Shown here one piece after another: positions 1 through 14,106 of a stretch of 64,000 bases of DNA. The notes under the pieces are model-generated. The model was given only the letters and a program-made list of their open reading frames with translations, was not told the DNA's origin and searched no databases. Where the stretch lies: contig CASIAE010000013.1 in NCBI GenBank assembly GCA_949372605.1, forward strand, positions 1-64,000, written 5' to 3'. Position 1 is the stretch's first letter. Each line of letters starts with the position of its first letter. Both the position numbers and the translations under genes were made by a program. This DNA comes from an uncultured Flavobacteriaceae bacterium. GTDB taxonomy: Bacteria > Bacteroidota > Bacteroidia > Flavobacteriales > Flavobacteriaceae.

Positions 1-1244
1 ATGAAGTGGGTAATCTTAAGATTAAAGACACTGATACAATTCAAATAATGAAAGATTACATGGCTAAAGGAAGGTTTAGTCGTGGTCGTGAGGTTATAGC
101 CAATGCTAGTTTTGCATTTGTTGGAAATATAGATCATTCAGTTGAGCAAGTTGTTAAATCTTCAGACCACTCATTATTTCTTACATTACCAAAGGCATTT
201 GACTTTGCAATTCAAGATCGATTTTTCTACTATTTACCTGGATGGGAAATCCCCAAGATGGATCCAAGGTGGTACGCTTCTAATTACGGCCTTATTACAG
301 ATTATTTTGCAGAAGCTTTTCATTATATGCTAAAAAACAACAGCTCTTATAGTAACATTTTATCTACAAAGATGAAGCTTGGTTCTAAGGTTGAAGGTCG
401 TGATGATTTAGCAATCCAAAAGACTACAATGGCCTTGTTGAAAATTATTCATCCAGATGCCAATCCAACAGACGAAGAGTTCGAAGAGATTTTAGAATAT
501 GCTATTGAAGGTCGAAGAAGGGTGAAGGAGCAGATGGATAAAATGAAAGAGGATAATGAATTTAGTGGTTTAGATTTGTCATACTTCACGAGTGCAGGAA
601 AAGAAATTGTCGTTTATTGCCCGGAAAGTAAGGATGTTCTTAAAGGTCATTTTTCGAATACAGAGCCAACTTCAAACTCAGGAGTAATTATTGAAAATTC
701 AGTTGAAAACATTGTAACTCCTTCTGATTCAGGAGTGTTTAACTCAGAAGATGTTAACAGTCAAAACCTTATTGAAAAGCATTTAAAAATATACTATGGA
801 GATATAGGATATAGTTATGAAGATGTTCTGAAAAGCTATTTGTCTGGTGCTACTCAGGTGACATTACAAGATCCATATATTAGACAAAAACATCAAATAT
901 CAAACTTTCTGAAGCTGGCTGAACTAACCGTTAAAATTGGTGATTGTAAGAAATTACACCTTATTACCTCTTCCAATGATATTGAGCAAGAACGAGAAAA
1001 TGAATATGCATTTGAACAGATTGCTAATAGTCTCTTCGAAAACGATATTGAGTTCACGTTTGAATTTTCTAAAACTATTCATGATAGACAAATCGAAACT
1101 TCGAATGGATGGAGAATTGTTATGGGAAGAGGATTAGATTATTTCCAATCATTGACCGGAAATTATTTACAAGTAGGAGCAAATGATCAAAGTCTGAGAT
1201 CATGTTTGGAAACAAGTTTTGAATTTATAAAAGTAAAATCCTAA
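1..1244 (+). CDS. BrxL-like AAA+ protein with C-terminal MIT_C domain (5' end outside window)
   Basis: This is the 3' part of a gene that enters from the left edge; the frame is open to base 3, so the GTG at base 6 is not a real start. The first codons read E-V-G, and bases 1-2 would complete an Asp codon, fitting the Walker B DE of BREX BrxL. Next come BrxL hallmarks: FVGNI near residue 38, a DRFFYYLPGWEIPKM stretch near 70-85 and EGRRRVKEQ near 168. BrxL normally ends in a Lon-type protease domain; none is seen here. Instead, after a Ser/Asn-rich linker, residues about 260-410 match the phospholipase-D-like C-terminal domain of eukaryotic MITD1 (DPYIRxxHQ, IHDR, NGWRIVMGRGLDYF). BrxL proteins are DNA-associated AAA+ proteins of phage defence; MITD1's domain binds membranes. 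The function of the fusion is inferred only as defence-related. Walker A lies outside the window. Confidence 0.8.
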   Translation, partial: EVGNLKIKDTDTIQIMKDYMAKGRFSRGREVIANASFAFVGNIDHSVEQVVKSSDHSLFLTLPKAFDFAIQDRFFYYLPGWEIPKMDPRWYASNYGLITDYFAEAFHYMLKNNSSYSNILSTKMKLGSKVEGRDDLAIQKTTMALLKIIHPDANPTDEEFEEILEYAIEGRRRVKEQMDKMKEDNEFSGLDLSYFTSAGKEIVVYCPESKDVLKGHFSNTEPTSNSGVIIENSVENIVTPSDSGVFNSEDVNSQNLIEKHLKIYYGDIGYSYEDVLKSYLSGATQVTLQDPYIRQKHQISNFLKLAELTVKIGDCKKLHLITSSNDIEQERENEYAFEQIANSLFENDIEFTFEFSKTIHDRQIETSNGWRIVMGRGLDYFQSLTGNYLQVGANDQSLRSCLETSFEFIKVKS

Positions 1245-1297
1245 AGATTATCCTTTAATAAATATAAGGGGAGTTAGGATTTATTAATCAGAAATAC

Positions 1298-1714
1298 ATG
1301 AAGCTCAAAGTCATCAAATACAAGAACTACGGGCGCACCATGACAGGGGGCGAAGATGCTGATGATTGGAAGCACATGTTTTACTGGTCCTTTTATGAGT
1401 TGAGCAATGGACACATCATAAATCTACATTACACAGAAAATTGGGAAAAGGATAAATTTATAGATGATGACTATGATTATTCCTATACTAAGGACGAGCT
1501 AAAAAATGGGGAAATCATATCGTATGAATTTGGGGATGCAAAAGCTAACGACGTAGACGCAATGTCTAAAGAATTCTTTGATTGGTTTGAATCCCTTCCT
1601 CCTTATAGTGATATTAAAAACCCTACTCGTCCAAGTTTAGAAGAGGAAAAATGTGTTAAAGAGTTTTATGAAAAAAACATAATGGATAAAAAGATCAAAA
1701 GACAGATACAATAA
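1298..1714 (+). CDS. Acidic orphan protein, 138 aa
   Basis: I do not recognise this family. The ATG follows 53 bases after the BrxL-like stop, on the same strand, so co-transcription is possible. The product is soluble, with no signal peptide or membrane segment. It is rich in Asp, Glu, Trp and Tyr in its first two thirds (for example DDWKHMFYWSFYEL and a DDDYDYSY patch) and ends in a basic Lys/Arg tail. The frame is intact with ordinary codon use, so it is probably a real gene. Its place beside a defence-type AAA+ gene hints at an accessory or island role, but nothing in the sequence shows what it does. Confidence 0.55.
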   Translation: MKLKVIKYKNYGRTMTGGEDADDWKHMFYWSFYELSNGHIINLHYTENWEKDKFIDDDYDYSYTKDELKNGEIISYEFGDAKANDVDAMSKEFFDWFESLPPYSDIKNPTRPSLEEEKCVKEFYEKNIMDKKIKRQIQ

Positions 1715-1738
1715 TTATAGCGCCTTAACATAATTCAT

Positions 1739-2585
1739 ATGGATTTTATAAATCATTTACTTTCATTTTCCTCAAGTATTATTAGCCTGGAATTAGATAA
1801 AACAAGTGTAAATAGAATAATCTGGTTAGATGAAACTTATTATCGAGAAGATTATTTAGATCCTTTACTGTTATTCATTTCAAATTAATTTGATAAATGC
1901 CAAGGAAATAATGTTGGCGCGTATAATTAATAATTTTGACGAAGCTATCAAATCGAAATGTGGAAACGATATAGATTTAAGTGAATACTCAGATAAAGAT
2001 TATTGGAAATATGGAAATGAAACTGATGAAAAACAACAAAATATAAACAAGCGCTATTATGACATATAAGACTTACTCCAAGAGATGAAAAAGTATTCAA
2101 AAAATTATGGTTGCGAACTTACATTAAAGATCTTTCACAAATTCTAAGTAATATAAGAACAGTAACAAATAATCCTAAGCAGGTTGCTATTGATAAATCA
2201 AAAAACGGTGTTACTACCGTTAAAAAAGTAAAGGATAATAAGAGAATAACAATCAGAGATAAAAAAGTACATGATCTTGTTAAAGCATTGAACCTAGAGA
2301 TTGATTTTCTAAGGGATGACATTTTGCCTAAAGAGTTTGTATTAGTTCTAATTAGACAGTCAGACAAGAATATTCATTTAAACATTGATAATGGTTCATT
2401 TCATTATTTACTAACTAAACTTAAAGGTTATTTCTATAATTTTTCAATAACATCGGTGGCTAGAACAAATAAGATCTATAGCTCTAAAGGGACACTCCTT
2501 ATAGCTAAAAAGTCTAGGTAATTCAAAATCTGATAATCCAAAACTAAAGGTTGAAATTGATCGTTTTTTCAAAAAATTTGAATAA
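1739..2585 (+). pseudogene. Decayed gene of unknown family, several frameshifts
   Basis: Four open segments follow one another in shifting frames: ATG 1739 to a stop at 1886-1888, then a frame continuing to a stop near 2068, then a frame through to 2521, then a last frame ending at 2585. The peptide joins are smooth: one segment ends NKRYYDI and the next begins HIRLTPRDEK; the last join restores KKSLGNSKSDNPK. Read together they give a basic protein of about 280 residues, rich in Lys, Asn and Ile. I do not recognise the family. A TTG-started 136-codon frame at 2111-2521 is only the longest surviving piece. The gene lies on the same strand as the BrxL-like gene, so it may be a dead member of that island. 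Confidence 0.55.
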
Positions 2586-2734
2586 AAAGATAGGTTTTTT
2601 CCTATCCACTCCCAACTTTCCCTATTTCATTATTTGACATTATAAATCTTTGCATATGATTAATTTCATAAAGATGTAGAGTTTACTTCAAATGAAAGTA
2701 GCCTCTCAGTTTTTTAAATATTAAAGAATTTATA

Positions 2735-2953
2735 ATGATTCAAAATCAAATCATTTTTGACGTTCTATCAAAAGAAGAACTCGAAGACCTCATCGGGAAA
2801 TCCCTGGAGGAGGCATTTAAAAACAACCTATCGAACAGCACGCCAGATCAGGAGCTTCTCACCAGAGAACAAGCCTGTGCGCTCTTAAAGGTCGATCCTA
2901 GCACTCTTTGGAGATGGACCAGACAACGTAAAAGAAATGGCCTATGGGCCTGA
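2735..2953 (+). pseudogene. Helix-turn-helix DNA-binding protein, 3' end lost
   Basis: The first 60 residues look like the short HTH proteins common on flavobacterial mobile elements: a variable acidic N-terminus, then LLTREQACALLKVDPSTLWRW, a MerR/excisionase-type helix-turn-helix where S/T-x-L-x-R-W marks the recognition helix. Relatives normally continue for about 30 more residues through a wing. Here the frame runs into foreign sequence after WRWTRQ and stops at 2953. From about 2925 the DNA belongs, in another frame, to a GMC oxidoreductase gene. The gene therefore looks cut by a recombination or deletion junction. If expressed, the truncated product would have an incomplete DNA-binding domain. 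Confidence 0.6.
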
Positions 2954-3434
2954 GTTCAAAGAATCAATTCTGAACCCAGGTGGATGGACCATCGGTCTTA
3001 ATGGCTTTGGTGAGGTGTTACCTTATCATGAAAACAAAATGACTCTTGACTATGACAAACTAGATCAATGGGGCTTACCGACCGTTACTTTTGATGCAAC
3101 AATTCGTGAAAACGAACTCAATATGCGAAAGGACATGCAAATTCAAGCAATGGAAATGCTAGACAATGCTGGATTTAAAAATATTTCGGGATACGATAAC
3201 GAATATCATTTAGGTCTAGGAATTCATGAAATGGGAACTGCTCGAATGGGACGTGATCCTAAAACTTCGGTACTTAATGGTAACAACCAATTGCATGAAG
3301 TGCCCAATGTATTTGTTACCGATGGTGCAGCAATGACCTCTTCAGGAAATGTAAATCCTTCGCTTACTTATATGGCATTGACCGCAAGAGCAGTAGATTT
3401 TGCTGTAAGAGAATTAAAAAAAATGAACCTTTAA
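2922..3434 (+). pseudogene. GMC family oxidoreductase, C-terminal fragment
   Basis: About 165 residues match the C-terminal part of flavobacterial GMC-family dehydrogenases (FAD-dependent oxidation of sugars or alcohols). Clear marks are MAYGPEFK at the start, LNGFGEVLPYHENK, the IHEMGTARMG segment holding the catalytic His, and NVFVTDGAAMTSSGNVNPS, containing the conserved Asn of the NPS/T motif. The FAD-binding N-terminal two thirds, about 400 residues, is missing. The ATG at 2937 is an internal Met of the full protein, not a real start. The frame is open upstream into the truncated HTH gene, so the break lies near 2921-2936. The next gene, 11 bases downstream, is its usual partner subunit. 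Confidence 0.85.
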
Positions 3435-3445
3435 AAGATTACATC

Positions 3446-4096
3446 ATGCAAAGAAGAACCGCATTAAAAAATATTGGACTTTCGTTTGGAGCAGTAGCTC
3501 TTAGCTCAACAGTTGTTAGTCTTTTCGAAAGCTGTCAGACAGGAGAAGGTGTTTGGACTCCAAAATTTTTCACATCACAACAAGCTGATTTAGTTAGCAA
3601 AATAATCGATGTAATTTTACCTACTACTGACAATACACCCGGTGCAAACGACCTTAATCTAACTCAATTCATGGATGGTTATATGGCTCTTGTTTCAAGT
3701 CCAGAGGATAAGGAATTCGCTAAAATGTCATTACCTATAGTTTCTAAACTAACGCTTGAGGGAGCTGGTAAGGAAAAATTTTCTGAGTTGACAAACGAAG
3801 ACATAGACGCGCTATTAAATCGTTTCTTAAGAGCCGACAAAGCAACACAAGAATCTCGATGGGACACACTTAACGCTTGGGCTGAGGCAAAGGAAAAAGG
3901 TGAAACAAATGCTGTTCCGGAAAAAGCCGCTGCACATTCTATGATAAACAGTTTGAGAAGTTTAGCGGTATCTGCCTTTAAAAATTCTGAAGTAATTGGC
4001 GAAACTGTTTTGGCTTATGCTCCCGTTCCTGGAGAACAAAAAGGATGTGTATCCATAGAAGAAGCGACCGGTGGAAGAGCTTGGTCGCTTTACTAG
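3446..4096 (+). CDS. Gluconate 2-dehydrogenase subunit 3 family protein, Tat-exported
   Basis: This 216-residue protein begins MQRRTALKNIGLSFGAVALS, a twin-arginine signal with a hydrophobic stretch, so it should be exported folded; tatA occurs at 43.5 kb in this window. The mature part matches the gluconate 2-dehydrogenase subunit 3 family (F-T-x-x-Q-x-x-L-V-x-x-I-x-D-x-I-L-P-x-T-D-x-x-P-G-A near residues 42-68, and GxRAW at the end). In this family the small subunit pairs with a GMC flavoprotein and helps export or assemble it. Here the partner gene directly upstream is reduced to its 3' end, so this subunit may now be an orphan unless another GMC protein substitutes. The gene itself is intact. 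Confidence 0.85.
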   Translation: MQRRTALKNIGLSFGAVALSSTVVSLFESCQTGEGVWTPKFFTSQQADLVSKIIDVILPTTDNTPGANDLNLTQFMDGYMALVSSPEDKEFAKMSLPIVSKLTLEGAGKEKFSELTNEDIDALLNRFLRADKATQESRWDTLNAWAEAKEKGETNAVPEKAAAHSMINSLRSLAVSAFKNSEVIGETVLAYAPVPGEQKGCVSIEEATGGRAWSLY

Positions 4097-4339
4097 AGCC
4101 TTCTTTTACCATTGAGGATTGGGAGATTAGATTAGATACCCATTTCACCAGCGTATCCCCAAAAGGAAAATCGATTTATTTTGAAGGGGTGGGGTGTTGA
4201 ATTGAGAGTTTTAGGCTGGATTTTTTGGATTTTCACCTCAAATGCCTACTAGTTATTGCAAGATTTGTTGCCAATATGTTGCCAGAAGGTTAAATAATAA
4301 ACCGCAACACCTTGTTTATAAAGCTGTTACGGTTTTAAT

Positions 4340-4416
4340 TGGTGGTCCCACCTGGGCTCGAACCAGGGACCAACTGATTATGAGTCAGCTACTCTAACCA
4401 ACTGAGCTATAGGACC
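4340..4416 (-). tRNA. tRNA with CAT anticodon (elongator Met or Ile2)
   Basis: On the minus strand a full cloverleaf is readable. The acceptor stem GGTCCTA pairs with TGGGACC; the D arm contains AGCTCAGTTGGTTAGAG; the anticodon stem-loop has loop CTCATAA (anticodon CAT at 4380-4382); the T arm contains GGTTCGAGCC. The discriminator is A and the terminal CCA is encoded. CAT serves elongator or initiator methionine, or isoleucine when lysidine-modified; the paired first acceptor base (G1-C72) argues against initiator. I cannot separate Met from Ile2 by eye. Confidence 0.9.
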
Positions 4417-5018
4417 TTTTTAACTGTTTATAGTGCCTTCGATAGGATTTTACTTTTTAATTTATGACGTTTTTTATAAAAATCACAATGAAGATCACAA
4501 TATGGGCAAAATCAAACTCTTTAAAATTGTGGATAGCAATGCAAATATAAAAAGTGTTTTGTAATATGTAACGGGTTTACAATCTATTTTTGGGTATTTG
4601 CGTTTGGCAGTTCTTTGGTCTGTCGTCATTTCTGTAATATCTAGCAGTGAAGCAGCCTCATCATTACTTTCTGTAATTCATCTTTAACCTCTGTGGAAAT
4701 TTATACTGTAACGTGTAACAGGTTTACGCCTTTTAAGTAAGTCCAACTAACCTAATACACCCTGAGATGCGGATTTACCCCTGCCAACTGGTTTTAACCC
4801 CCAAATAAAATGGGGTAATTAGATCCCAGATATCCCCAGTGAAATCAATGGTTTAGCGCTATATGTTTGGACTAGATTTCTCTTCCTTCACTTACCTCAT
4901 AAGCAGGATTAAAAGCGTTCGTATTAATATGCTCTATAAATATTTTCTCCTGCACCTTTGCTTGACTTGTATGTCCTATTTAGATTAGCGCTTAGACTAT
5001 TAATTATATTCTAAAATA
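4417..5018. other. Gene-free stretch with possible decayed recombinase tail
   Basis: There is no intact gene in these 600 bases between the tRNA and the rhamnosidase. On the minus strand, roughly 4976 down to 4872, about 35 open codons read IGHTSQAKVQEKIFIEHIN and end in a stop; the GHTS start recalls the G-H-x-S motif of tyrosine recombinases, but the match is weak. Two similar TGTAAC...GGTTTAC stretches occur near 4567 and 4707. The region looks like decayed accessory DNA next to a tRNA, a common integration site. Confidence 0.3.
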
Positions 5019-7469
5019 TTAGGGGGGAATACTGAAAGCATATTTTCCACTTTTTAAAAAGAATTTCCCATCCTTTAAGTCGTCTATTTCTGAAGTATTT
5101 AAATGCTCTTTACCTTTTAATATGATGATTCTTTGGTGGGGTGTTTTATTTAGGACTACCTCAGCAATGCATGACTTTGGTACAGTAATCTCATAACGAT
5201 ATCCTCCATTATTTGTTACCCATCTGGAAATTATTTTTCCAGCAGGTGCTCTGTAGGAGGTCGATACACTATCTAGCCCAACAGGTGTGAAGGGCTTGAT
5301 ATAAAACCTGTCGAACCCAGGATAATTGGGATGGGGTCGTATTCCCCCAAGCCAACGGTAGAACCACTCAGTAACGGAGCCAAACATGGGATGCGAATTA
5401 GAATATATATCATCACTTTCTTGCCAAGTTTCCCAAAGTGTTGTTGCCCCTCGATCAACCATATAACCCCAACCCGGATAATCTTTGCTGTTAATCATGT
5501 CAAAGGTAGTCTGGGGAGAGATGAATTGCGAAATAGCCTCCAAGGCAAATGGAGTTCCAAAGATGCCGGTGGTCAAGTGCTGAGCCGGAGCTTTTTGAAG
5601 GGCATCCACCAAAGAGTCCTTTGCAGCCTTGATTTCATCTTTGGGAATGATCTTGTGATATAGCAGGGCTGAGAATAAGGTTTGCCGATTAATTTCCCCT
5701 TCAACCTTTTTGTTCCAAAATGTATCCCTGAGCTTTTGTTCCAAGCCTATGGCTAATTCATCGTATTTTTCTTTTTTCTCCTCATCCCCCATCAGACTTG
5801 CAAATAATCTCATAATTCTTGCAGATTGCAGATAATGTAAAGTACCAATCAATTCAACTGGAACGGGAGACAGAGACTCATGGTCGCTTAATCCGGTATG
5901 CACCATTCCCTCGGGATGAAGACGTGCAACTTTATCCATCCATTGGTTGTTGAATACATACATTTCCTTAACGAATTCATCGTCTTTGTAGAAGAGGTAT
6001 AGCTGATGTTGCGTAATTAAAAAAGCTGATTCCCAACTAATGCCACAATATTGAATCCCGACACTTGGGGCGGTATCTATAAATGTGGAGTCATTGATGG
6101 CATCCACCCAGTCATAGATCACTTTTTTATAAAATGACTGCATATGAAAATTATAGATAAAAGAGGCGCTGGTGGCATTGATATCCCCTCCATAACCAAA
6201 TTTTTCTCTGGCAGGGCAATCGGATTGTACTCCAACTAGATTGGCTAAAAAAGTCCTTCTGACGGTATTCTGGATCTCATTTAACAAAATCGAGGAGGAG
6301 GTAAAATAATTTTCCTGATTCACTTTAGTATGAATGGAAAGTCCTTTAATTTCATCTTTTGTTGGTTTTTTATTCAAGCCGTCAATTTCCATATAACGGA
6401 AGGCATGATAGGTAAATTCTGGCCTAAACCAAGTCGGGTTCTTACTGCCAATGATATAGCTATCCGTTTGCAAAGCGACATTAGGAGCACCTGGTCCTCC
6501 GACTCCTCTCTTTTTAATTTGACCCGTCACCGATGTCATAGGATTCAAGGTGCCATCATGGTAAATACGTTCGCCAAACTTGAAAATGATTTTATCTCCG
6601 CGTTGTCCACTTAATTTGATGGAATAAGTGCCCGTAAAATTTTCGCCCATATCCACCATCCATTTTCCTTCTTTCGTTGCATAAATTTTTTGAGGTTCAA
6701 TTTCTCTGTTGATCTGAATTGGTGGAAAAAAAGCTTTTTGAAGCTTCCCTCCGGGGGCAGTTGCGAGCACTGTATTTTCCCAGTCAGAATCGTCAAAATC
6801 AGCTTGATTCCAGCCTTCAATTTCTTTTCTTCCGTCGTAGTGCGTTCCAAGATAAACGCTGTTTTTAACAACGGGGCCATAGCTATATTTCCATAAACTG
6901 TCGGATATTATTTCTTCCGTCCTCCCATTTTTATAGGTCAGCCTAATCTTTACAATAAACCGCGGCTTCCCTACGGAAAGTCGTTCTCTTAAATTGATTC
7001 TACCCCACATTTTTAAAGGAAGTGGATTGTAAAAACCATTTCCCAGCGTCACACCCAAACAATTTTCCCCTTTGATCATATTTGGAGTGATATCATATTC
7101 ACTAAAATATACCCTTTTACTATAGTCGGTCCATGTAGGATCTAAAATATTCTTTTCTAATTCAAAAGCATTAATGGAGCTTTTGTAATATCCAGCAGCT
7201 GTGATGTATAGCGTAGCTTTTTGGGGGAGGTTTTTCAAAAAGAAGGTTTTTCGAAAAAGGGGAGATGGATCGTCTAAATAAAATTCTGCGTCTGACTGGG
7301 GCAATATCCTTTTATCTTGAATCCATTTTGACTTTTGATTTTGAAAAAAAACAACTGTTTTACTGTCCTCAACAACTTGGGAACAACGTAAAAAAAAGAT
7401 GTAAATAAAAACTAAAAAAGAAAGCTTTAGGGACCGCATTGGAAAGTGTTTTTTGTTCCTTAATTGCAC
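5019..7469 (-). CDS. Alpha-L-rhamnosidase, GH78, lipoprotein
   Basis: At 816 residues this has the usual length and domain order of GH78 alpha-L-rhamnosidases, which release terminal L-rhamnose from polysaccharides or glycosides. A basic N-terminus and hydrophobic stretch end in FFLRC, a lipoprotein signal, so the enzyme should sit at the membrane. The N-terminal beta-sandwich domains include the sugar-binding region around GNGFYNP. The catalytic (alpha/alpha)6 barrel includes SDCPAREKFGYGGD, which holds the conserved acidic residues, plus WETWQESDD and the MFGSVTEWFYRWLGGI helix; a C-terminal beta-sandwich closes it. An internal Met at residue 11 gives an equally good lipoprotein start. A sulfatase-like remnant and an AraC regulator follow upstream on the same strand, suggesting a small polysaccharide-use cluster. 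Confidence 0.92.
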   Translation of the reverse strand: MQLRNKKHFPMRSLKLSFLVFIYIFFLRCSQVVEDSKTVVFFQNQKSKWIQDKRILPQSDAEFYLDDPSPLFRKTFFLKNLPQKATLYITAAGYYKSSINAFELEKNILDPTWTDYSKRVYFSEYDITPNMIKGENCLGVTLGNGFYNPLPLKMWGRINLRERLSVGKPRFIVKIRLTYKNGRTEEIISDSLWKYSYGPVVKNSVYLGTHYDGRKEIEGWNQADFDDSDWENTVLATAPGGKLQKAFFPPIQINREIEPQKIYATKEGKWMVDMGENFTGTYSIKLSGQRGDKIIFKFGERIYHDGTLNPMTSVTGQIKKRGVGGPGAPNVALQTDSYIIGSKNPTWFRPEFTYHAFRYMEIDGLNKKPTKDEIKGLSIHTKVNQENYFTSSSILLNEIQNTVRRTFLANLVGVQSDCPAREKFGYGGDINATSASFIYNFHMQSFYKKVIYDWVDAINDSTFIDTAPSVGIQYCGISWESAFLITQHQLYLFYKDDEFVKEMYVFNNQWMDKVARLHPEGMVHTGLSDHESLSPVPVELIGTLHYLQSARIMRLFASLMGDEEKKEKYDELAIGLEQKLRDTFWNKKVEGEINRQTLFSALLYHKIIPKDEIKAAKDSLVDALQKAPAQHLTTGIFGTPFALEAISQFISPQTTFDMINSKDYPGWGYMVDRGATTLWETWQESDDIYSNSHPMFGSVTEWFYRWLGGIRPHPNYPGFDRFYIKPFTPVGLDSVSTSYRAPAGKIISRWVTNNGGYRYEITVPKSCIAEVVLNKTPHQRIIILKGKEHLNTSEIDDLKDGKFFLKSGKYAFSIPP

Positions 7470-7557
7470 TTCAGCACTCTATTTCGTTTGGATGAACTTT
7501 CATTTTAAAGACTTTTCGTATCATGGCTTAGGTGAATTAATTTTGTAATAAAATGTA

Positions 7558-7720
7558 TTAAAAATCAGTAGATATTATGTGTAAGTGTTTTAATAAATCA
7601 TGAGTATGTTTTTTTTGAATATTAATAGTTTGTTCTTGGTTAAATAAATCATACCACTACTTCGGGTCTTCTTTTAAATTGTAAAATTCCCCTGTAATAA
7701 TATCAGCTGAAACATAATCC
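7558..7720 (-). pseudogene. Possible sulfatase C-terminal remnant
   Basis: In the 400-base gap between the rhamnosidase and AraC genes, the minus strand carries about 54 codons reading AGDYVSADIITGEFYNLKED, then PK, a TAG stop, and WYDLFNQEQ... down to a TAA at 7558. The E-x-Y-N-L-x-x-D-P-x-E-W-x-N-L pattern is typical of the tail of formylglycine-dependent sulfatases, with TAG standing where Glu is expected. Upstream, towards 7800, protein-like codons occur in another frame. No catalytic part remains. Identity is tentative. Confidence 0.35.
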
Positions 7721-7870
7721 CCTGCTTTTTCTTTTCTTTTTAGAATCATTTCGTTTAATTTCGATGTGTGTCAAATTCACTTTGATGTTACCGTTCTTTT
7801 GAAATTGCAACGTATTTGTGAATGATTTTGAATTGGTCTTCTTTCTTTTTGCCCAATAAAAAACATTATA

Positions 7871-8746
7871 TCAGTCAATAACATCCTCAAACAGGCTCTC
7901 ACGATAGGCATTCGGGGTGTAATTTGTTGTTTTTCTAAAATTTCTAAAAAAATTAGAGAGGTTATTAAATCCGCTCTTGTAGCAAATACTTTTCACGTCA
8001 AGGTCCGTTTCCGAAAGAAGTTTTGTGGCGTGATTAATTCGATATTCATTTAAAAAAGCAGTAAAAGTCTTGTCGGTACTTTTCTTAAAAAATCGACAAA
8101 AAGACTGAGGCGTCATGAATACCTCCGCGGAAATGTCCTTCAGTGCAATCGGCTCCATAAAATTGTCGCGAATGAAGTTGAAGATACTCTTAAGTCTTTT
8201 GTTCTCAATTGGACTACTTATAAAAGCATAGCCCGCAGCATTAAGAACCTCCTTGTCCTTGGACAATGCTAGGTCGTGTAAAATCTTAACGAATGTTAAA
8301 AAACCATCAATCTGAGACTCATACTTTAAACCCTCCATACGGAGGCCAATGTCTTCCTTAATGGGCCCACTAAAAACAATCCCTTTATTAGAAAGCTCAA
8401 GAAGTTGATTGATCATTTTTAATTCCACAAAATTCTTGAATGCGCCCTCAAAAACGTCTGGCTTAAACTGAATCACAATCTCTTTTTGACCTTCATCAAA
8501 AACTTTTGTAAATCCCGTATGAGGCAAATAAGAACCAATCAAAATTAGGTCCCCATCCTTATAATTTGAGAGGTGTGTTCCAACCTGTCGTTTCCCAACG
8601 CCCGAGTTTATATAAACCAATTCAACTTCTGGGTGATAATGCCATCTTAATTTTTTCTGATTTGGAGTGTTCGTATCAAAAAACGCACACTTATAAGAGT
8701 GTCCCAAATCGGGAGAAATTGCTTCATAGTCTGCCTTTAATTCCAT
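7871..8746 (-). CDS. AraC family transcriptional regulator with cupin sensor domain
   Basis: This 291-residue regulator has an N-terminal cupin-like sensor, visible as LRWHYHPEVELVYINSG near residues 33-50, where the His residues usually sit in the small-molecule pocket. A C-terminal AraC DNA-binding domain follows, with two helix-turn-helix units in the last 100 residues; ICYKSGFNNLSNFFRNFRK is the classic second-HTH signature. Such proteins in this phylum often activate neighbouring carbohydrate genes. It is transcribed in the same direction as the rhamnosidase and lies directly upstream of it, so that gene is a plausible target, though this is inference. Confidence 0.9.
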   Translation of the reverse strand: MELKADYEAISPDLGHSYKCAFFDTNTPNQKKLRWHYHPEVELVYINSGVGKRQVGTHLSNYKDGDLILIGSYLPHTGFTKVFDEGQKEIVIQFKPDVFEGAFKNFVELKMINQLLELSNKGIVFSGPIKEDIGLRMEGLKYESQIDGFLTFVKILHDLALSKDKEVLNAAGYAFISSPIENKRLKSIFNFIRDNFMEPIALKDISAEVFMTPQSFCRFFKKSTDKTFTAFLNEYRINHATKLLSETDLDVKSICYKSGFNNLSNFFRNFRKTTNYTPNAYRESLFEDVID

Positions 8747-9047
8747 AATTATATGTGCTTTAGCCTAAGGATAGGTAATATATTTCATATTTAACAAGTT
8801 TGTACAATAGCGAGTCTTTTCCTGCTCATTTTCGGGGTTTTTTTATATTAAAAAACATTAATAATGTAATTCTATTTGTGTGAAATTATTTGTTTGAAAA
8901 AAATAGGAAAAACAAGTGATAAAATTTACCTTTTGTATTACAAACCCAAAGTAAAAATAAAACTGTGGATAACGGCTTAAGTTACTGTTTATATCTATTT
9001 AAAAAAATAATTTAAAAACCACAGTGGGTGTTAATCTAAAAAAATAT
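8747..9047. other. Intergenic region upstream of the AraC gene
   Basis: No gene is seen here. The stretch is AT-rich and contains one exact DnaA-box-like 9-mer, TGTGGATAA at 8964-8972, but no cluster of such boxes, so it does not look like an origin. It presumably holds the AraC promoter; no clear TAnnTTTG motif is seen on the minus strand. Confidence 0.4.
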
Positions 9048-9055
9048 TATATTTG
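9048..9055 (+). promoter_or_regulatory. -7 promoter element (TATATTTG) before small ORF
   Basis: This exact match to the Bacteroidota TAnnTTTG element lies 13 bases upstream of the ATG at 9069. It supports expression of the 48-codon ORF that follows. No convincing -33 TTG is seen. Confidence 0.5.
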
Positions 9056-9068
9056 ATATGATATTTTT

Positions 9069-9215
9069 ATGAAACGGAACCTTTTACATTTCGAATTTCC
9101 AAAAGGAGCTCAAAGCTTCTGTGTTAATGACATACATTATACGAGGGAGTCTTTTTTATTGGCCCAAAAAAAAGAGCGTTTTAGAGGCCAAAATGGACGT
9201 TTTGTAAGAAAATAA
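9069..9215 (+). CDS. Small basic protein, 48 aa, unknown
   Basis: ATG 9069 opens 48 codons ending in GRFVRK and a TAA. The product is basic, without membrane segments, and has a Gln/Lys/Arg-rich second half (AQKKERFRGQNGRFVRK). A good promoter element sits 13 bases before the start, a spacing shared by proven-looking genes in this window, which is the main reason to call it. I do not recognise a family; the basic tail could bind nucleic acid, but that is speculation. Confidence 0.4.
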   Translation: MKRNLLHFEFPKGAQSFCVNDIHYTRESFLLAQKKERFRGQNGRFVRK

Positions 9216-9285
9216 AGCTTCTAATATTCGATTCTCTTTCTCTAAAGATTTTGTCATTAAATTTAATAAGGTAACTTTACTGATC

Positions 9286-9645
9286 ATGTTCTCTACAGAC
9301 AAAGCTTCTATATTAATTGTTTCCTTTTTTTATGGGATTACTCTGTTTTTTGGGTATTTCTTGTTCTCTGACTATCACGATCAGCCTAAGATCGCACCAG
9401 ATAGATTAATTATCTCAATAAACAGCGGGGATATTGATCTTGAGAATAACAGCCTTTTAATTCAGGTAGACAATGGAAAGGGGGAAATGTCTCAGAAACT
9501 TTTTGATTCTAAATCTGTTGTAGCCGTTTCCGTTTTTTATGAGGAAAAAGGATATAAGCTAGATAAGGTTACCGAAACAAACAAAAATAGTTATGGAGAA
9601 GAAGTCGTCATTACCAAGCTCTGGTATTCTCGTAAACAAAAATAA
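9286..9645 (+). CDS. Hypothetical membrane-anchored protein, 119 aa
   Basis: The protein has one N-terminal hydrophobic segment (residues about 8-28, ILIVSFFYGITLFFGYFLF) followed by about 90 soluble residues, so it is probably anchored in the inner membrane with the rest outside. No known domain is recognised. A near-consensus promoter element, TAACTTTA at 9272-9279, lies just upstream of the ATG. It stands alone between a small ORF and the DUF2452 gene. Confidence 0.6.
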   Translation: MFSTDKASILIVSFFYGITLFFGYFLFSDYHDQPKIAPDRLIISINSGDIDLENNSLLIQVDNGKGEMSQKLFDSKSVVAVSVFYEEKGYKLDKVTETNKNSYGEEVVITKLWYSRKQK

Positions 9646-9737
9646 GAATGGGTTGTTTCCTTAGAAATATTATCGCATATTCTCTCCCCCTAAATTATTG
9701 TCTTTTTTTAATCTCATTATCTTTAAAAAAATAATCT

Positions 9738-10148
9738 TTGAAAAACAAAAAGTCTGATCAGATAGCTTGGGACGAAAAACAAGGGGAATATATCGCTCGA
9801 TTACTTCCCTATGCTTCTGAAGTTAGCGGTCCTGTTATTAACATTCCCAATGTAGATGCTTTTAAGAAAAAAGGGGTTGATAAGGTCTCCAAACAACTTC
9901 AAAGTGAGCTTATAGAATTGCAAGACAAGATCAAGTCTTTTGTAAAAGCTGCATCCGATACACAAAAAGTATATTCCGCAAAATTTAAATTTGAACCCTT
10001 GGTTGGGGAAACTTATTTTTTATATCAAGGAGAAAAAGAAGAGTACCTCTCTTTAATCCCTCCTCAGAGCTGGAAAAAGAAATTTATAGGGGCCTATCGA
10101 CTTAATTCCGAATACAAATGGGATAATATCATCTGGCCAACTGGCTAA
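9738..10148 (+). CDS. DUF2452 domain-containing protein
   Basis: This 136-residue soluble protein matches DUF2452, a family of unknown function frequent in Flavobacteriia. Typical marks are LLPYASEVSGPVI near residues 22-35, SAKFKFEPLVGETYFLY near 80 and a hydrophobic IGAYRLN near the end. The start is a TTG at 9738; no better ATG exists without losing conserved residues. It has no signal peptide or membrane segment. Confidence 0.85.
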   Translation: MKNKKSDQIAWDEKQGEYIARLLPYASEVSGPVINIPNVDAFKKKGVDKVSKQLQSELIELQDKIKSFVKAASDTQKVYSAKFKFEPLVGETYFLYQGEKEEYLSLIPPQSWKKKFIGAYRLNSEYKWDNIIWPTG

Positions 10149-10574
10149 ATTTTGTGTTGAATAACCTTGGCCCTCTAGATTAAACGCCATTCCAGTTCCT
10201 AAAAGAGTAAAATCTCCCAAAACGTTCACATAATGGGGCGGGGTGTTTTTCCTGCCTTGCACGAAGCAACTGCTGAAAGCTTCATCAGAACTCATCTCAC
10301 CAATAGCTGTTATGTTTTAAAACCAAGGCGTCACCTCGATGTTTTCATAAATTCCAACGTATTAATTTTCCTTTTTTAACCCAAGGGTTGATCCCCATTT
10401 TTTTTTGCACGAATTATTGAGTTGAGTCCTTCGTGGTCGACATGAGAATAGAATATGTGTTTTCACCTTATTGTCACTGTTGTGTTGCGCTAATTGCATC
10501 AAACTGTCAAGAAGTCGTTTTATGTAAGGTTGGTATCATTCCCTCAAAAATAGACAATTATCATGCAGAATACC
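10149..10574. other. Intergenic stretch before rbfA
   Basis: There is no supported gene. On the minus strand, about 55 codons below 10295 read as protein-like sequence (PPHYVNVLGDFTLLGTGMAF) with stop codons just upstream, which could be a decayed fragment of an unidentified gene; it runs on into the DUF2452 gene. Plus-strand codons upstream of 10589 are an in-frame extension of rbfA, not part of it. Confidence 0.3.
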
Positions 10575-10582
10575 TACTTTTG
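10575..10582 (+). promoter_or_regulatory. -7 promoter element (TACTTTTG) of rbfA
   Basis: The exact TAnnTTTG match ends only six bases before the rbfA ATG at 10589. With transcription starting about seven bases after the element, the message would be nearly leaderless. Confidence 0.6.
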
Positions 10583-10588
10583 CTTAAC

Positions 10589-10990
10589 ATGGGAATTGAA
10601 GAAACTCCAAGACAGAAAAAAATTGGCGTCGCATTACAGCAAGAAATGGCAAATATGCTGCAACAGGCGATACGCGATCAGGGCGTCACAAATTTAGTGC
10701 TCTCCATCACTAAAGTGGTGGTGACTGTAGACCTTTCTATAGCAAGAATATACCTTAGTATTTTTCCTAAAAATAATGCTAAAAAATATCTTGAGGGTAT
10801 AAAAGGAAATGCTTTTCAAATCAAGCATGACATGGCACAACGAATGAAAAATCAGTTACGCCGCATGCCCGAGTTTTCTTTTTATCTGGATGATTCGCTA
10901 GACTATATTGAGGCAATTGACGATGCGATTAATCGTCCTGAAGACCCAATTTATAACCCTGAAATGCTTGCTAAAAGAAAAAAAATATAA
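10589..10990 (+). CDS. rbfA: 30S ribosome-binding factor RbfA
   Basis: RbfA binds the 30S precursor and helps mature the 5' end of 16S rRNA, mainly at low temperature. The 133-residue product starting MGIEETPRQKKIG has the family's single KH-like fold: the helix RQKKIGVALQQEMANMLQQ, the strand LVLSITKVVVTVDLSIARIYLS and the C-terminal helix with RMKNQLRRMPEFSFYLDDSLDYI. The frame is open 52 codons further upstream, but that extension has no RbfA-like sequence and would contain the promoter element at 10575, so ATG 10589 is chosen. The permease gene follows after four bases, an arrangement usual in Flavobacteriia. Confidence 0.93.
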   Translation: MGIEETPRQKKIGVALQQEMANMLQQAIRDQGVTNLVLSITKVVVTVDLSIARIYLSIFPKNNAKKYLEGIKGNAFQIKHDMAQRMKNQLRRMPEFSFYLDDSLDYIEAIDDAINRPEDPIYNPEMLAKRKKI

Positions 10991-10994
10991 TCCA

Positions 10995-12200
10995 ATGAGG
11001 GTGGCATTCAAAATTGCATGGCGCTACTTTTTTTCTAAAAGCCGACAAACAATAATCAACCGCATTAATGCCATTGCTTTAATAGTAATTATTATTGCCT
11101 CTGCTTCACTTTTAATTGTCCTGAGCGCTTTCTCTGGCTTAAAAGGTTTTGGACTTTCTTTCTCTAATGCTTTTGATCCTGATTATAGGGTTACTCCTGT
11201 TCAAGGAAAAACATTAACCATTGATTCCATAGCTTTAAACCAGCTTTATTCTATTAGTGAAATAAACGATTTAGCTCCTATTATTGAAGAAAAAGTGTTT
11301 TTATCTTTCAAAGAAAAAAACCAAGTTGCTTATCTCAAAGGTGTAGGAGTTGATTATCTCAAAGTAGTTCCGGGAGATTCTCTTGTAGCAGTCGGCGAAT
11401 GGCTTGTTCCAGAGACAAATGGCGTGGTTGTGGGTTATGGAATCGCAAGTGCACTTGGTCTTGGCGTATACGACTACAGCTCCTTTCTAAACATTAGCAT
11501 TCCCAGAAATAAAATAAAATCAGCGTTCGAGAAAAGCCCATTCCAAAGTGTTTCGTCTGTCGTTATCGGTCTTTATCAAATAAGTGAAGATCTCGATAAA
11601 AAGTACATTTTTGCACCCATAACATTTGCGCAAGAATTACTTCAGTATTCTGAGGAAGTCTATTCGGCCATTGAGCTCAAAACAAAACCAAAAACAGATC
11701 TAAAACAATTAAAACAACAAATTGAAAAAATCCTAGGAAAAGAAGTTGTTGTAAGGGACCGAATTCAATTAAATGCAGCACTTTACAAGATGCTCAACAC
11801 CGAAAACTTAGTCATCTACCTCATCTTTACCTTGGTGCTCATTATTGCTTTCTTTAATGTTGTTGGGGCTTTAATCATGATGATTCTTGATAAAAAACCG
11901 CAAATGAGAATCCTTGCTACTATGGGCGCCAGGTCCAAAAAATTAAGGTTAGTTTTTTATTTATTGGGTATGTTAATTACGGTCATAGGCGGACTGGTTG
12001 GAATAGCTTCCGCCAGTATTTTGATTGCCATCCAATCTGCCGCTCCGTTTCTATATGTCCCCGGAACTTCATTGCCCTATCCAGTTCGTCTTGAATTTAA
12101 AAACCTGGTTCTTGTGTTTTTTACACTCATATTTTTGGGTAGTATTGCCTCTTCATGGGCAAGTCGAAGTGTTGGAAGTGAGCGCTTAGGAAAAAATTAA
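10995..12200 (+). CDS. LolC/LolE-like ABC transporter permease (FtsX family)
   Basis: The 401-residue protein has the MacB/FtsX permease plan. One membrane helix near residues 20-45 is followed by a long periplasmic MacB-type core domain to about 265. Three helices then occur near 270-305, 320-350 and 370-395, with the FtsX motif around NVVGALIMMILDKKPQMRIL. Relatives (LolC/E) extract lipoproteins from the inner membrane with a LolD ATPase, which is not encoded here. ATG 10995 begins MRVAFKIAWRYFFSKS, the standard start of this family; the longer frame into rbfA is discarded. It is co-oriented with rbfA, and its stop overlaps the convergent dusB stop by three bases. Confidence 0.9.
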   Translation: MRVAFKIAWRYFFSKSRQTIINRINAIALIVIIIASASLLIVLSAFSGLKGFGLSFSNAFDPDYRVTPVQGKTLTIDSIALNQLYSISEINDLAPIIEEKVFLSFKEKNQVAYLKGVGVDYLKVVPGDSLVAVGEWLVPETNGVVVGYGIASALGLGVYDYSSFLNISIPRNKIKSAFEKSPFQSVSSVVIGLYQISEDLDKKYIFAPITFAQELLQYSEEVYSAIELKTKPKTDLKQLKQQIEKILGKEVVVRDRIQLNAALYKMLNTENLVIYLIFTLVLIIAFFNVVGALIMMILDKKPQMRILATMGARSKKLRLVFYLLGMLITVIGGLVGIASASILIAIQSAAPFLYVPGTSLPYPVRLEFKNLVLVFFTLIFLGSIASSWASRSVGSERLGKN

Positions 12201-13189
12201 ACCCACTCAAGGTCTTGAACCTCATTTAAAACTCGATCAAATGCTGCAAAAACATCATTTGCACCATCAGAAGTTACCATCGCTGTTCGATAAGGCTTAA
12301 AGTTAGGAATACCTTTAAAATAGTTAGTATAATGTCTACGAGTTTCCAAAACACCTAGAATTTCACCCTTCCAACTTATGGCCATTTCAAGGTGGCGGCG
12401 CGCAACGGCAACACGCTCTTTTAAGGTGGGAGGGGAGACGTATTCTCCTGTCTTTATAAAATGTTTTACCTGGTTAAAAAACCAAGGATTTCCTATACTA
12501 GCCCTTCCAATCATTGCCCCATCTAGCCCATATCGATCTCGCATTTCAATTGCTCTTTCTGGAGAATGAACATCTCCGTTTCCAAAGATCGGAATATGCA
12601 TTCTTGGGTTGTTTTTTACTGCAGCAATGGGAGCCCAATCAGCCTCTCCTTTGTACATTTGAGCGCGAGTTCTTCCGTGAATTGAGATAGCCTTTGCTCC
12701 AGCATCTTGAAGTCTTTCTGCAACCTCAACAATCTTAATTGAGTCATGGTCCCAACCCAATCTGGTTTTGATAGTAAGAGGCAAGTGGGTTCGTTTGGCC
12801 ATTTCCTCTGTTAGCTTAACCATTAGGGGAATGTCCTTTAGAATTCCAGCCCCAGCACCCTTACTGACCACTTTTTTTACCGGGCAGCCAAAATTAATGT
12901 CAATAATATCGGGTTTTGATGCCTCTACAATTTCCACAGATCGCAACATCGAATCCAAGTTGGCACCAAAAATTTGTATTCCAACAGGGCGTTCTTTTTC
13001 ATAAATATCTAATTTTTGAACACTCTTAGCAGCATCCCTAATTAATCCTTCACTTGAGATAAACTCAGTGTAGACGACGTCTGCACCATTTTCTTTACAA
13101 AGTGCACGAAAGGGCGGATCGCTCACATCCTCCATGGGTGCAAGCAAAAGAGGAAACGTTCCTACCGATAAATCGCCAATTTTAACCAC
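12197..13189 (-). CDS. dusB: tRNA-dihydrouridine synthase DusB
   Basis: DusB reduces uridine in the tRNA D-loop using FMN and NADPH. The 330-residue product shows the family signatures in order: APMEDVSDPPFRALC at the N-terminus, the active-site cysteine in INFGCPVKKVVSKGAGAG near residue 100, KTRLGWD near 142, ISIHGRTRAQMYKG near 172 and GNGDVHSPERA plus DGAMIGRASIGNPWFF near 205-240. This TIM barrel is followed by the helical tRNA-binding domain. A promoter element lies 12 bases upstream. Confidence 0.95.
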   Translation of the reverse strand: MVKIGDLSVGTFPLLLAPMEDVSDPPFRALCKENGADVVYTEFISSEGLIRDAAKSVQKLDIYEKERPVGIQIFGANLDSMLRSVEIVEASKPDIIDINFGCPVKKVVSKGAGAGILKDIPLMVKLTEEMAKRTHLPLTIKTRLGWDHDSIKIVEVAERLQDAGAKAISIHGRTRAQMYKGEADWAPIAAVKNNPRMHIPIFGNGDVHSPERAIEMRDRYGLDGAMIGRASIGNPWFFNQVKHFIKTGEYVSPPTLKERVAVARRHLEMAISWKGEILGVLETRRHYTNYFKGIPNFKPYRTAMVTSDGANDVFAAFDRVLNEVQDLEWV

Positions 13190-13201
13190 TTCTGTTTTTT
13201 A

Positions 13202-13209
13202 CAAAAGTA
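13202..13209 (-). promoter_or_regulatory. -7 promoter element (TACTTTTG) of dusB
   Basis: On the minus strand this is an exact TAnnTTTG match 12 bases before the dusB start codon. Confidence 0.6.
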
Positions 13210-13236
13210 ATAAAAAGACTTTCGATACCAACAGGA

Positions 13237-14106
13237 TTATTTTAAGTCAAAGGTGGTGGTAATGTTATTAAGAAAATCTGCGTCCCAAATTTCAGAAACA
13301 ATACCATTATCCAGGTAATAAATTCGTGGTGGGGAGTCCCCAATTAGATCAAAAAATTGATTTACGTCAATAAAGTCATGCGGAAAAGAAGACTGAGTAA
13401 GCGCTTCAAATTCTGGGACAGTCGTTACACCTTCTTGATAAAAAAGAACATAAAGGTCTGGGAAGTTTGAGTGATTGTTCTTGAGTTTACCTATTTCAAC
13501 TGCAGCATCTTGGCAGTGTTCACAATCGAGATTGAATATGGCAACCAAATTTTTACCATTGGTCAGATCTACTCGACCTTTGGGCTCAAAGTTTGTAAAC
13601 GTTTCAAAAGGGAAATCCTCGTGGTTTGGCATCGGCAAAATAAACCACATGCTTAAAATGGTGATTGACATAAACCCTAAAACAATTGATTTAGAAATGG
13701 TTTTTACTTTTGCATACTTAAAAACAACAAAAGCAACAATCAACATTAATATGTTTTTTATAATTGATTGTTCGGGAGTCATGGAGATCATTTCGCCAAA
13801 GCATCCACAGTTACCGGTGTCACCAATTGCCCACAAATAGATCAGATGGACAGTAAATCCCCCCAATAAAACAAAAGTAAACCGCATCAATTGTTTGACA
13901 TAATAAGGTAAAACAATCAGTGCACCTAGCCCAAATTCCAAACCAATAAAAAACCGTGCCATGTAACCAGCTAGTGTTCTATTGGAAACAAGCCCTTGGT
14001 CCATCAAAGTGATTTCAAAAAATCCAGGACCAACCGCTTTTGTATAGGCAGAAAACAAAAAAGTGATGCCTAATAATATTTGAATAATCCGAGTTAACTG
14101 TTTCAT
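13237..14106 (-). CDS. MauE/DoxX-type membrane protein fused to thioredoxin-like domain
   Basis: The 289-residue protein combines two parts. Residues 1-150 form four hydrophobic segments of a MauE/DoxX-type membrane domain with an NCGCFGE motif near residue 105, a loop cysteine pair typical of redox-associated MauE proteins. After another helix near 142-158, residues about 175-289 form a thioredoxin-like periplasmic domain with a CEHC active site near residue 203 (FNLDCEHCQDA). The membrane part may pass electrons to or from the thioredoxin part, by analogy with vitamin K epoxide reductase- and DsbD-like proteins; this is inference. It lies upstream of dusB on the same strand with 47 bases between. 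Confidence 0.8.
   Translation of the reverse strand: MKQLTRIIQILLGITFLFSAYTKAVGPGFFEITLMDQGLVSNRTLAGYMARFFIGLEFGLGALIVLPYYVKQLMRFTFVLLGGFTVHLIYLWAIGDTGNCGCFGEMISMTPEQSIIKNILMLIVAFVVFKYAKVKTISKSIVLGFMSITILSMWFILPMPNHEDFPFETFTNFEPKGRVDLTNGKNLVAIFNLDCEHCQDAAVEIGKLKNNHSNFPDLYVLFYQEGVTTVPEFEALTQSSFPHDFIDVNQFFDLIGDSPPRIYYLDNGIVSEIWDADFLNNITTTFDLK

What the first reader, a model, noticed from the sequence alone, without database searches (positions are those of the whole stretch)
1..1244. BrxL-like AAA+ protein with a MITD1-type domain in place of the Lon protease
The readable part has BrxL marks (Walker B-like DEVG at the edge, GWEIPKM, EGRRRVKEQ), but the usual C-terminal Lon-type protease is absent. 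Instead the last 150 residues closely resemble the PLD-like C-terminal domain of human MITD1 (DPYIRxxHQ, IHDR, GRGLDYF), a membrane-binding ESCRT-linked domain. A defence AAA+ protein coupled to a eukaryotic-style membrane-binding domain suggests a DNA-sensing or DNA-holding protein that acts at the membrane. I recall MIT_C domains in some bacterial conflict genes but cannot say how widespread this exact fusion is.
Basis: partly seen in the sequence, partly recalled or inferred. Interest (0 to 1): 0.75.

Follow-up and report, generated by a model that had tools for sequence, protein, structure and literature searches.

The report
Phage-defence BrxL with PLD-like tail
The gene is the back half of a known kind of bacterial anti-phage ring protein (BrxL) whose usual tail is replaced by a domain closely related to part of a human cell-division protein; this variant is already described, but what the tail does is untested.

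Summary
Confirmed, but known. ORF 3-1244 is the last 413 codons of a brxL gene cut by the contig start. Residues 1-187 match BrxL_ATPase (1.6e-56), 269-409 MIT_C (2.9e-44); no Lon domain. The modelled tail has nearly the MITD1 fold (Z 24), then PLD-type restriction nucleases (Z about 10). The same fusion closes ordinary type I BREX operons in many phyla. A 2026 paper reports 1030 of 2913 type-1 BrxL with an "HKD-endoDNase" replacing LonP, in my judgement this tail; a PADLOC BrxL model spans it. The membrane reading rests on MITD1 kinship alone. His and Arg of an HxR(x)4D/N/S motif are kept in 54 and 55 of 55 domains, favouring phosphodiester chemistry; but Lys is Arg, the window has Ser where "HRD" has Asp, and human MITD1 keeps the same H and R. 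I found no paper on the following: in a tail tree MITD1 groups with one BrxL clade against another (100/99; 86/98 with far relatives added), hinting at a shared origin of an ESCRT-linked domain and a BREX effector.

The parts
3..1244 (+). brxL, 3' part only (413 codons plus stop); 5' end lost at the contig start
   Evidence: PADLOC BrxL PDLC02508 E 5.1e-119, profile 278-695 of 698
3..563 (+). C-terminal part of the BrxL AAA+ ATPase domain (residues 1-187)
   Evidence: PF13337 E 1.6e-56, profile 124-307 of 313
564..806 (+). linker between ATPase and tail domain (residues 188-268); part of the matching region of relative L002 (498-537) has very low model confidence, so is probably flexible
   Evidence: pLDDT under 50 at 498-537 of L002; 75-108 residues, median 91, from the RRRVKEQ motif to the aligned domain in the 29 of 55 proteins with that motif
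807..1229 (+). MIT_C / PLD-superfamily domain (residues 269-409)
   Evidence: E 2.9e-44; model mean pLDDT 94.7; MITD1 Z 23.8-24.3, SauUSI Z 9.9, NgoAVII Z 9.5
870..905 (+). conserved DPYIRxxxQxxN stretch (D290 to N301)
   Evidence: Q298 and N301 in 55 of 55, P291 53, Y292 54, R294 50
1080..1139 (+). HKD-like motif HDRQIETSNGWRIVMGRGLD (H360, R362, S367, R376, D379)
   Evidence: H 54/55, R362 55/55, position 367 D42/N7/S5/G1, R376 54/55, D379 49/55; one search places H, R and position 367 on H, K and D of PLDc_2 (weak match)

Best explanation
The gene is the 3' end of brxL, the gene after pglZ in type I BREX operons, in the variant where the Lon-like tail is replaced by a single-motif PLD-superfamily domain of the MITD1 (MIT_C) kind (identity: about 0.97). 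Inferred mechanism: the BrxL ring loads on DNA using its N-terminal and AAA+ domains; the flexibly tethered tails pair, as PLD-family single-motif domains usually do (recalled), and the paired His/Arg sites handle DNA phosphodiesters, most likely nicking or cutting the DNA held in the ring (about 0.45). Shown: domains, predicted fold, neighbours of relatives, conserved His/Arg. Inferred: pairing, DNA cleavage, timing.
For: Domain hits. The full-length relative L002 has BrxL_N, BrxL_ATPase and MIT_C. PglZ upstream (next to brxL as a rule, within about 1 kb in L009, and in pieces in L033) in 29 of 32 loci; the other 3 (L001, L010, L027) start at their contig's edge; PglX in 23, BrxC in 21 of 32. 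Complete brxA-brxB-brxC-pglX-pglZ-brxL(MIT_C) in L121, and in L120 plus L113 with a GmrSD gene between brxC and pglX. Fold: after MITD1 the best rows are PLD-type restriction enzymes SauUSI and NgoAVII. H 54/55 and R 55/55. Profile alignment puts H, R and position 367 on H, K and D of PLDc_2. A far relative, L112 5780-6706, has HDRQVLTDKMFATLGSGVD, i.e. HxR(x)4D(x)6GS, the spacing of the HKD motif as recalled. Tail-to-tail ring pairing through the C-terminal domain is published for Lon-type BrxL (PMC10164562 passages and section 20). The paper's HRD-nuclease reading.
Against: The motif Lys is Arg in all 55 domains, and the motif Asp is absent in 13 of 55 including the window (Ser). The Asn of GSxN has no clear counterpart. 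Human MITD1 keeps the same H and R, is published as a membrane binder, and no nuclease activity of it appeared in the passages read. The profile match to PLDc_2 is weak (probability 23%). In the DNA-bound Lon-type BrxL the C-terminal domains sit far from the DNA. Two mutants in that ring-pairing interface restricted phage like wild type, though both formed more multimers, not fewer, so ring pairing is not shown to matter.
Confidence: 0.5

Rival explanations
1. The tail is a non-catalytic module: it pairs the two BrxL rings, as the degenerate Lon-like tail does, or binds a phosphate-bearing ligand or BREX partner through the conserved His/Arg pocket.
For: It occupies the place of a tail that shows no protease motif and joins rings in Lon-type BrxL. 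Lys to Arg in 55 of 55 domains and loss of the motif Asp in 13 of 55 are what drift from catalysis could look like; far relative L107/L115 has lost the His (SDR, read by eye).
Against: Near-total conservation of His and Arg in BrxL tails of many phyla is more than a spacer needs. Interface mutants of Lon-type BrxL restrict like wild type.
Confidence: 0.33
2. One reading: the tail binds membranes as MITD1 does, so BrxL senses or holds phage DNA at the inner membrane.
For: Closest solved relative is MITD1 (Z 24, 35-37% identity), whose PLD-like fold is reported to bind membranes and to need this for abscission (PMC6015221 passage).
Against: No membrane gene family recurs in three or more of 32 loci. 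The conserved residues are those of a PLD active-site-like motif. Net charge is -6 in the window and in the median of 55, -3 in 44 Lon-type tails and -3 in MITD1 itself, so charge does not decide.
Confidence: 0.1
3. Artefact: an assembly join made the fusion.
For: The window is a contig of a 69.7% complete genome and another odd joint lies at about 2930.
Against: The same architecture in 30 intact and 1 split of 80 fetched loci, including isolates; 74-77% identity of the tail to Algoriphagus.
Confidence: 0.01

Closest known systems
BrxL with a C-terminal 'HKD-endoDNase' in type-1 BREX (PMC12839542; outline, passages and section 19 read)
   Same: BrxL N-terminal and AAA+ domains, LonP replaced by a PLD-superfamily domain, PglZ kept; 1030 of 2913 type-1 BrxL. 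That it is the same tail is my judgement: no sequence of that paper was compared
   Different: That paper calls the motif HRD and likely active, and its main text holds no 'MITD1'. In the window and L002-L004 the D is S.
Acinetobacter BrxL (8emc, 8emh; PMC10164562, passages and section 20; source organism recalled)
   Same: N-terminal and ATPase regions align over residues 4-488 of relative L002, E about 1e-128
   Different: C-terminal domain is Lon/RadA-like and lacks the protease motif; here it is MIT_C
Human MITD1 C-terminal domain (2ymb, 4a5z)
   Same: Same Pfam family, Z 24, 35-38% identity; HDR, NGW, GRGLD, DPYIR and LRxC kept
   Different: MITD1 joins it to an ESCRT-binding MIT domain; here it is joined to a BrxL ATPase, with no MIT domain found in L002
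PLD-type restriction enzymes SauUSI and NgoAVII
   Same: Fold (Z 9.9 and 9.5); coupled to ATP-driven DNA motors (recalled)
   Different: 8-9% identity; canonical HKD motif (recalled) versus HxR here

Membership tests
BrxL (BREX) | BrxL AAA+ domain PF13337 / BrxL models | tested here: met
   E 1.6e-56; E 5.1e-119. The full-length NCBIfam cut-offs are not reached (200.6 of 628.25 and 177.2 of 329.3 bits), as expected of a gene cut by the contig start
BrxL (BREX) | BrxL_N DNA-binding domain PF20442 | not testable with these tools
   Off the contig in the window; present in relative L002, 5.3e-45
BrxL (BREX) | Beside BREX core genes (PglZ, PglX, BrxC) | tested here: inconclusive
   Window contig starts inside brxL and none of the three was found in the 69.7% complete genome; met in 29, 23 and 21 of 32 loci
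BrxL with Lon-like tail | C-terminal Lon-type domain | tested here: not met
   no Lon family; the tail is MIT_C. Lon-type control L035 rings
MIT_C (PF16565) | Profile match over cut-off, full length, MITD1 fold | tested here: met
   150.9 bits against cut-off 25, 1-141 of 142; Z 24
MITD1 | N-terminal MIT domain | tested here: not met
   L002 has BrxL_N and BrxL_ATPase instead; the window's own N-terminus is off the contig
MITD1 | Membrane binding | not testable with these tools
   No assay; charge not discriminating
HKD (PLD-superfamily) nuclease | PLD fold | tested here: met
   SauUSI Z 9.9, NgoAVII 9.5, Nuc 8.4
HKD (PLD-superfamily) nuclease | HxK(x)4D(x)6GSxN motif (motif recalled) | tested here: not met
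   Window HDRQIETSNGWRIVMGRGLD: K to R, D to S, no GSxN. So it is not filed as an HKD nuclease, only as likely working like one
HKD (PLD-superfamily) nuclease | DNA cleavage | not testable with these tools
   Needs an assay

The most novel reading that the evidence does not exclude
The C-terminal domain of eukaryotic MITD1, an ESCRT-linked abscission factor, and the tail of clade I BrxL share a common source later than the split of BrxL tails into clades: a BREX effector domain was captured by early eukaryotes (or the reverse). The PLD pocket kept from phage defence would then be the pocket of MITD1. Human MITD1 and clade I BrxL tails group against clade II BrxL tails and two other bacterial domains with 100/99 support (86/98 when two very distant rows are added), and MITD1 is closer to clade I (median 44%) than clade II is (33%).
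Probability: 0.3. Interest if true: 0.65.

Novelty: new member of a known kind. Interest (0 to 1): 0.3.

Why it matters
How BREX stops phage DNA is still argued over, and the BrxL tail varies between systems. The MITD1 kinship offers a solved structure for this tail, and a simple two-residue test (His and Arg) would tell whether about a third of type-1 BrxL proteins (1030 of 2913) are extra nucleases. If the domain is shared with MITD1 by descent, a eukaryotic cell-division factor carries a former or sister phage-defence domain. The individual gene in the window is a fragment and adds no more than a further example.

Tried and rejected
Assembly artefact for the fusion: rejected, relatives share it. 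Lon protease hidden in the tail: rejected (with Lon-type control L035). Rest of the BREX operon elsewhere in the genome: searches with PglZ, PglX and BrxC relatives found nothing, in a 69.7% complete genome, so this says little. Net charge as a test of membrane binding: not discriminating. A first profile of the domain had by mistake taken in the ATPase part; it was redone and one search is not used for counts. hhalign of the 55 MIT_C domains against 30 PLDc_2 domains: only a weak match (probability 23%), useful for the register alone; the 30 PLDc_2 frames were picked by requiring an HxK(x)4[DE] motif, which 30 of 30 fetched loci had. Full-length AlphaFold model of L002: mean pLDDT 72.0, residues 230-337 and 341-358 under 50, so not used for domain arrangement. 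Weak MIT_C hit L108 is a methyltransferase (gidB/rsmG-like, by recall) and judged chance. L105 is a 64-position MIT_C piece with a stop, over the cut-off (48.8 bits), with an McrBC-family gene in the same locus; it, L109 and L110 were not pursued. Foldseek and VIA rows after the PLD families (CD38, TrmB, USP) were taken as common arrangements. The tree of BrxL without tail (quick method, 101 rows; 2 fragments, L001 and L038, dropped) needs at least 3 changes of tail type; one of them is L032, which runs off its contig so that its tail is unseen, and L100 has a very long branch. The clades were named after seeing that tree; L001, not in it, was put in clade I for its similarity. Whether MITD1 lies inside clade I is not resolved (AU p 0.273 for clade I without it); only one eukaryotic sequence was used, and the program warned of long branches that meet. 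Literature: the listings (several of them capped) showed no paper that joins BrxL or BREX with MITD1; one cancer review holds the words 'brex' and 'MITD1' once each. One search showed none on a bacterial origin of MITD1 among the 10 listed. Of the 26 papers that hold BrxL and BREX I opened three, in part. PMC12715929 (passage) names PF16565 among BREX-associated families, citing an earlier study that I did not see. The Menshen paper cited in PMC12839542 and the two 2012 MITD1 papers are not held.

Full report
What is there. The window begins at the first base of contig C13 of a 1.39 Mb, 27-contig, 69.7% complete genome. ORF 3-1244 (+) is open to the left and encodes 413 residues. Pfam finds BrxL_ATPase at residues 1-187 (E 1.6e-56, profile 124-307 of 313) and MIT_C at 269-409 (E 2.9e-44), and no Lon family. 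PADLOC's BrxL model PDLC02508, 698 positions long, covers the fragment from position 278 to 695, tail included (E 5.1e-119), so this form of BrxL had a model in the 2023 release.

Relatives. The scan of genome contigs gave 453 stretches that encode a relative, of which the best 80 loci were kept. 30 of these 80 carry BrxL ATPase and MIT_C in one ORF, one more (L033) has the two halves in separate ORFs, and L032 runs off its contig before the tail. The hosts include Bacteroidota, Bacillota, Acidobacteriota, Pseudomonadota, Chloroflexota, Verrucomicrobiota, Spirochaetota and Thermodesulfobacteriota. In the 32 loci used for neighbours (window, L002-L031, L033; at most 10 kb on each side) a PglZ-family gene lies upstream in 29: next to brxL as a rule, within about 1 kb in L009, in pieces in L033. 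The other three loci start at the contig edge. PglX is present in 23 and BrxC in 21. Three further families reach 3 loci each and none reaches 4: GmrSD (one member, L002, scanned), helicases of RecD2 or TOTE type (three members scanned), and C-5 DNA methylases (two members scanned). Two fetched genomes show the whole operon: L121 has brxA, brxB, brxC, pglX, pglZ, brxL(MIT_C), and L120 with L113 has the same plus a GmrSD gene between brxC and pglX. In a third, L122, pglZ and brxL(MIT_C) adjoin. These are ordinary type I BREX operons. In the window's own genome none of PglZ, PglX or BrxC was found, which its incompleteness and the contig edge can explain.

How common. In 395 genomes of the phylum, 30 have a MIT_C match, 27 of them over the cut-off. 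Of the 23 strong loci fetched there besides the window (L082-L104), 22 also carry the BrxL N-terminal and ATPase regions; the exception, L103/L111, is a 1065-residue protein with MIT_C and 17 Sel1 repeats. Two more strong matches in BrxL-sized frames got no locus and were not examined. In 395 genomes of the class (some also in the phylum sample), 12 have BrxL; 8 have a MIT_C match, 6 over the cut-off, and all six of these share contig and frame length with a BrxL match. A paper of January 2026 (PMC12839542; outline, passages and section 19 read) reports 1030 of 2913 type-1 BrxL in which an "HKD-endoDNase" with an "HRD" motif replaces LonP. I judge this to be the same tail, though no sequence of that paper was compared. 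Its main text holds neither 'MITD1' nor 'ESCRT'.

The tail. A model of the tail from 55 aligned domains has mean pLDDT 94.7. Its best structural matches are MITD1 (Z 23.8-24.3, 35-37% identity), followed at Z 9.9 and 9.5 by the PLD-type restriction enzymes SauUSI and NgoAVII, then other PLD-superfamily proteins, with Nuc at 8.4. By sequence the only sound match among solved structures is MITD1 (a malate dehydrogenase at 0.0013 and weaker rows are judged chance).

Catalytic or not. Across 55 domains G269, Q298, N301, R362, W370 and G377 do not vary, and H360 is kept in 54. Profile alignment places H360, R362 and position 367 on the H, K and D of PLDc_2, though weakly (probability 23%). A far relative in L112 keeps HxR(x)4D(x)6GS; another, in L115, has lost the His. 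Thus the tail has an HKD-like motif with Lys replaced by Arg. Position 367 is D in 42, N in 7, S in 5 and G in 1; the window and L002-L004 have S, so "HRD" is not strictly true of the window. Human MITD1 has H and R too, N at the D position, and shares the flanking conserved stretches. Invariance of the pair speaks for a working pocket; the altered Lys, the variable Asp and the MITD1 precedent leave activity open.

Mechanism. In Lon-type BrxL the ring assembles on DNA by its N-terminal and ATPase parts, and the C-terminal domain joins two rings tail to tail, far from the DNA; two mutants of that interface restricted phage like wild type, though they formed more multimers rather than fewer (PMC10164562, passages and section 20). 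Here the tail hangs on a linker of 75-108 residues, counted from the RRRVKEQ motif in the 29 of 55 proteins that have it, part of it of very low model confidence in L002, so it could reach the DNA. Single-motif PLD domains usually pair to form one active site (recalled). My reading is that paired tails form a phosphodiester-handling site that nicks or cuts DNA held by BrxL; I give this 0.45, a non-catalytic ring-pairing or ligand-binding role 0.33, and membrane action 0.1.

Evolution. In a quick tree of BrxL without the tail, MIT_C-bearing proteins fall in two separated groups of 34 and 18 rows, plus L100 on a very long branch, which suggests that tails have been exchanged or lost. In a tree of the tails, human MITD1 and the 35 clade I tails stand together against the 18 clade II tails, L100 and L103 with 100/99 support; with two very distant rows added the same fork has 86/98. 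Whether MITD1 lies inside clade I is unresolved (AU p 0.273). MITD1 is closer to clade I (median 44% identity) than clade II is (33%). One eukaryotic sequence, 157 columns, clades named after a first tree and long branches make this a lead only.

Verdict. A true observation of a known BrxL variant, truncated by the contig. The membrane hypothesis is unsupported; the nuclease hypothesis is plausible and untested; the MITD1 link is the part worth keeping.

Noticed in passing
window 2600-3434: A small excisionase-like HTH reading frame (LLTREQACALLKVDPSTLWRWTRQ; name by recall) breaks off and runs straight into the C-terminal part of a GMC oxidoreductase gene (GMC_oxred_C, 1.9e-21) whose N-terminal part is missing, followed by gluconate 2-dehydrogenase subunit 3; either a deletion/insertion joint at the edge of the defence island or an assembly join. 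Three GMC_oxred_N matches lie elsewhere in the genome.
   Followed up: partly
window 1740-2521: What look like remains of a DUF6617 gene: a Pfam match over the cut-off to the later part of the profile in ORF 2111-2521, with broken reading frames before it.
   Followed up: partly
L111 4410-14945: MIT_C domain with 17 Sel1 repeats (10113-13310) beside an Eco57I-like methylase and an Mrr-type nuclease: a second, non-BrxL setting for this domain in what looks like a restriction locus.
   Followed up: partly
L112 3868-6706 and L115 1919-4514 (-): Two distant MIT_C-like ORFs (the second just under the Pfam cut-off), each directly after an AAA_21/DUF3696 ATPase gene (in two ORFs in L115); one keeps HxR(x)4D(x)6GS, the other has lost the His (SDR). 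Possibly an ATPase plus PLD-effector pair.
   Followed up: partly
L002 4851-6653; L113 3871-5718: GmrSD-type restriction gene inside the BREX operon, between pglX and pglZ in L002 and between brxC and pglX in L113.
   Followed up: no
L002 16880-19003; L003 18786-20996: Helicases with a TBP-TOTE domain downstream of the BREX operon in the two loci, a sign of further conflict systems in the same islands.
   Followed up: no
L033 (Hymenobacter sp. BRD67 plasmid) 1-11213: A plasmid-borne BREX operon whose PglX, PglZ and BrxL are each split into several ORFs; decayed or with sequencing errors.
   Followed up: no
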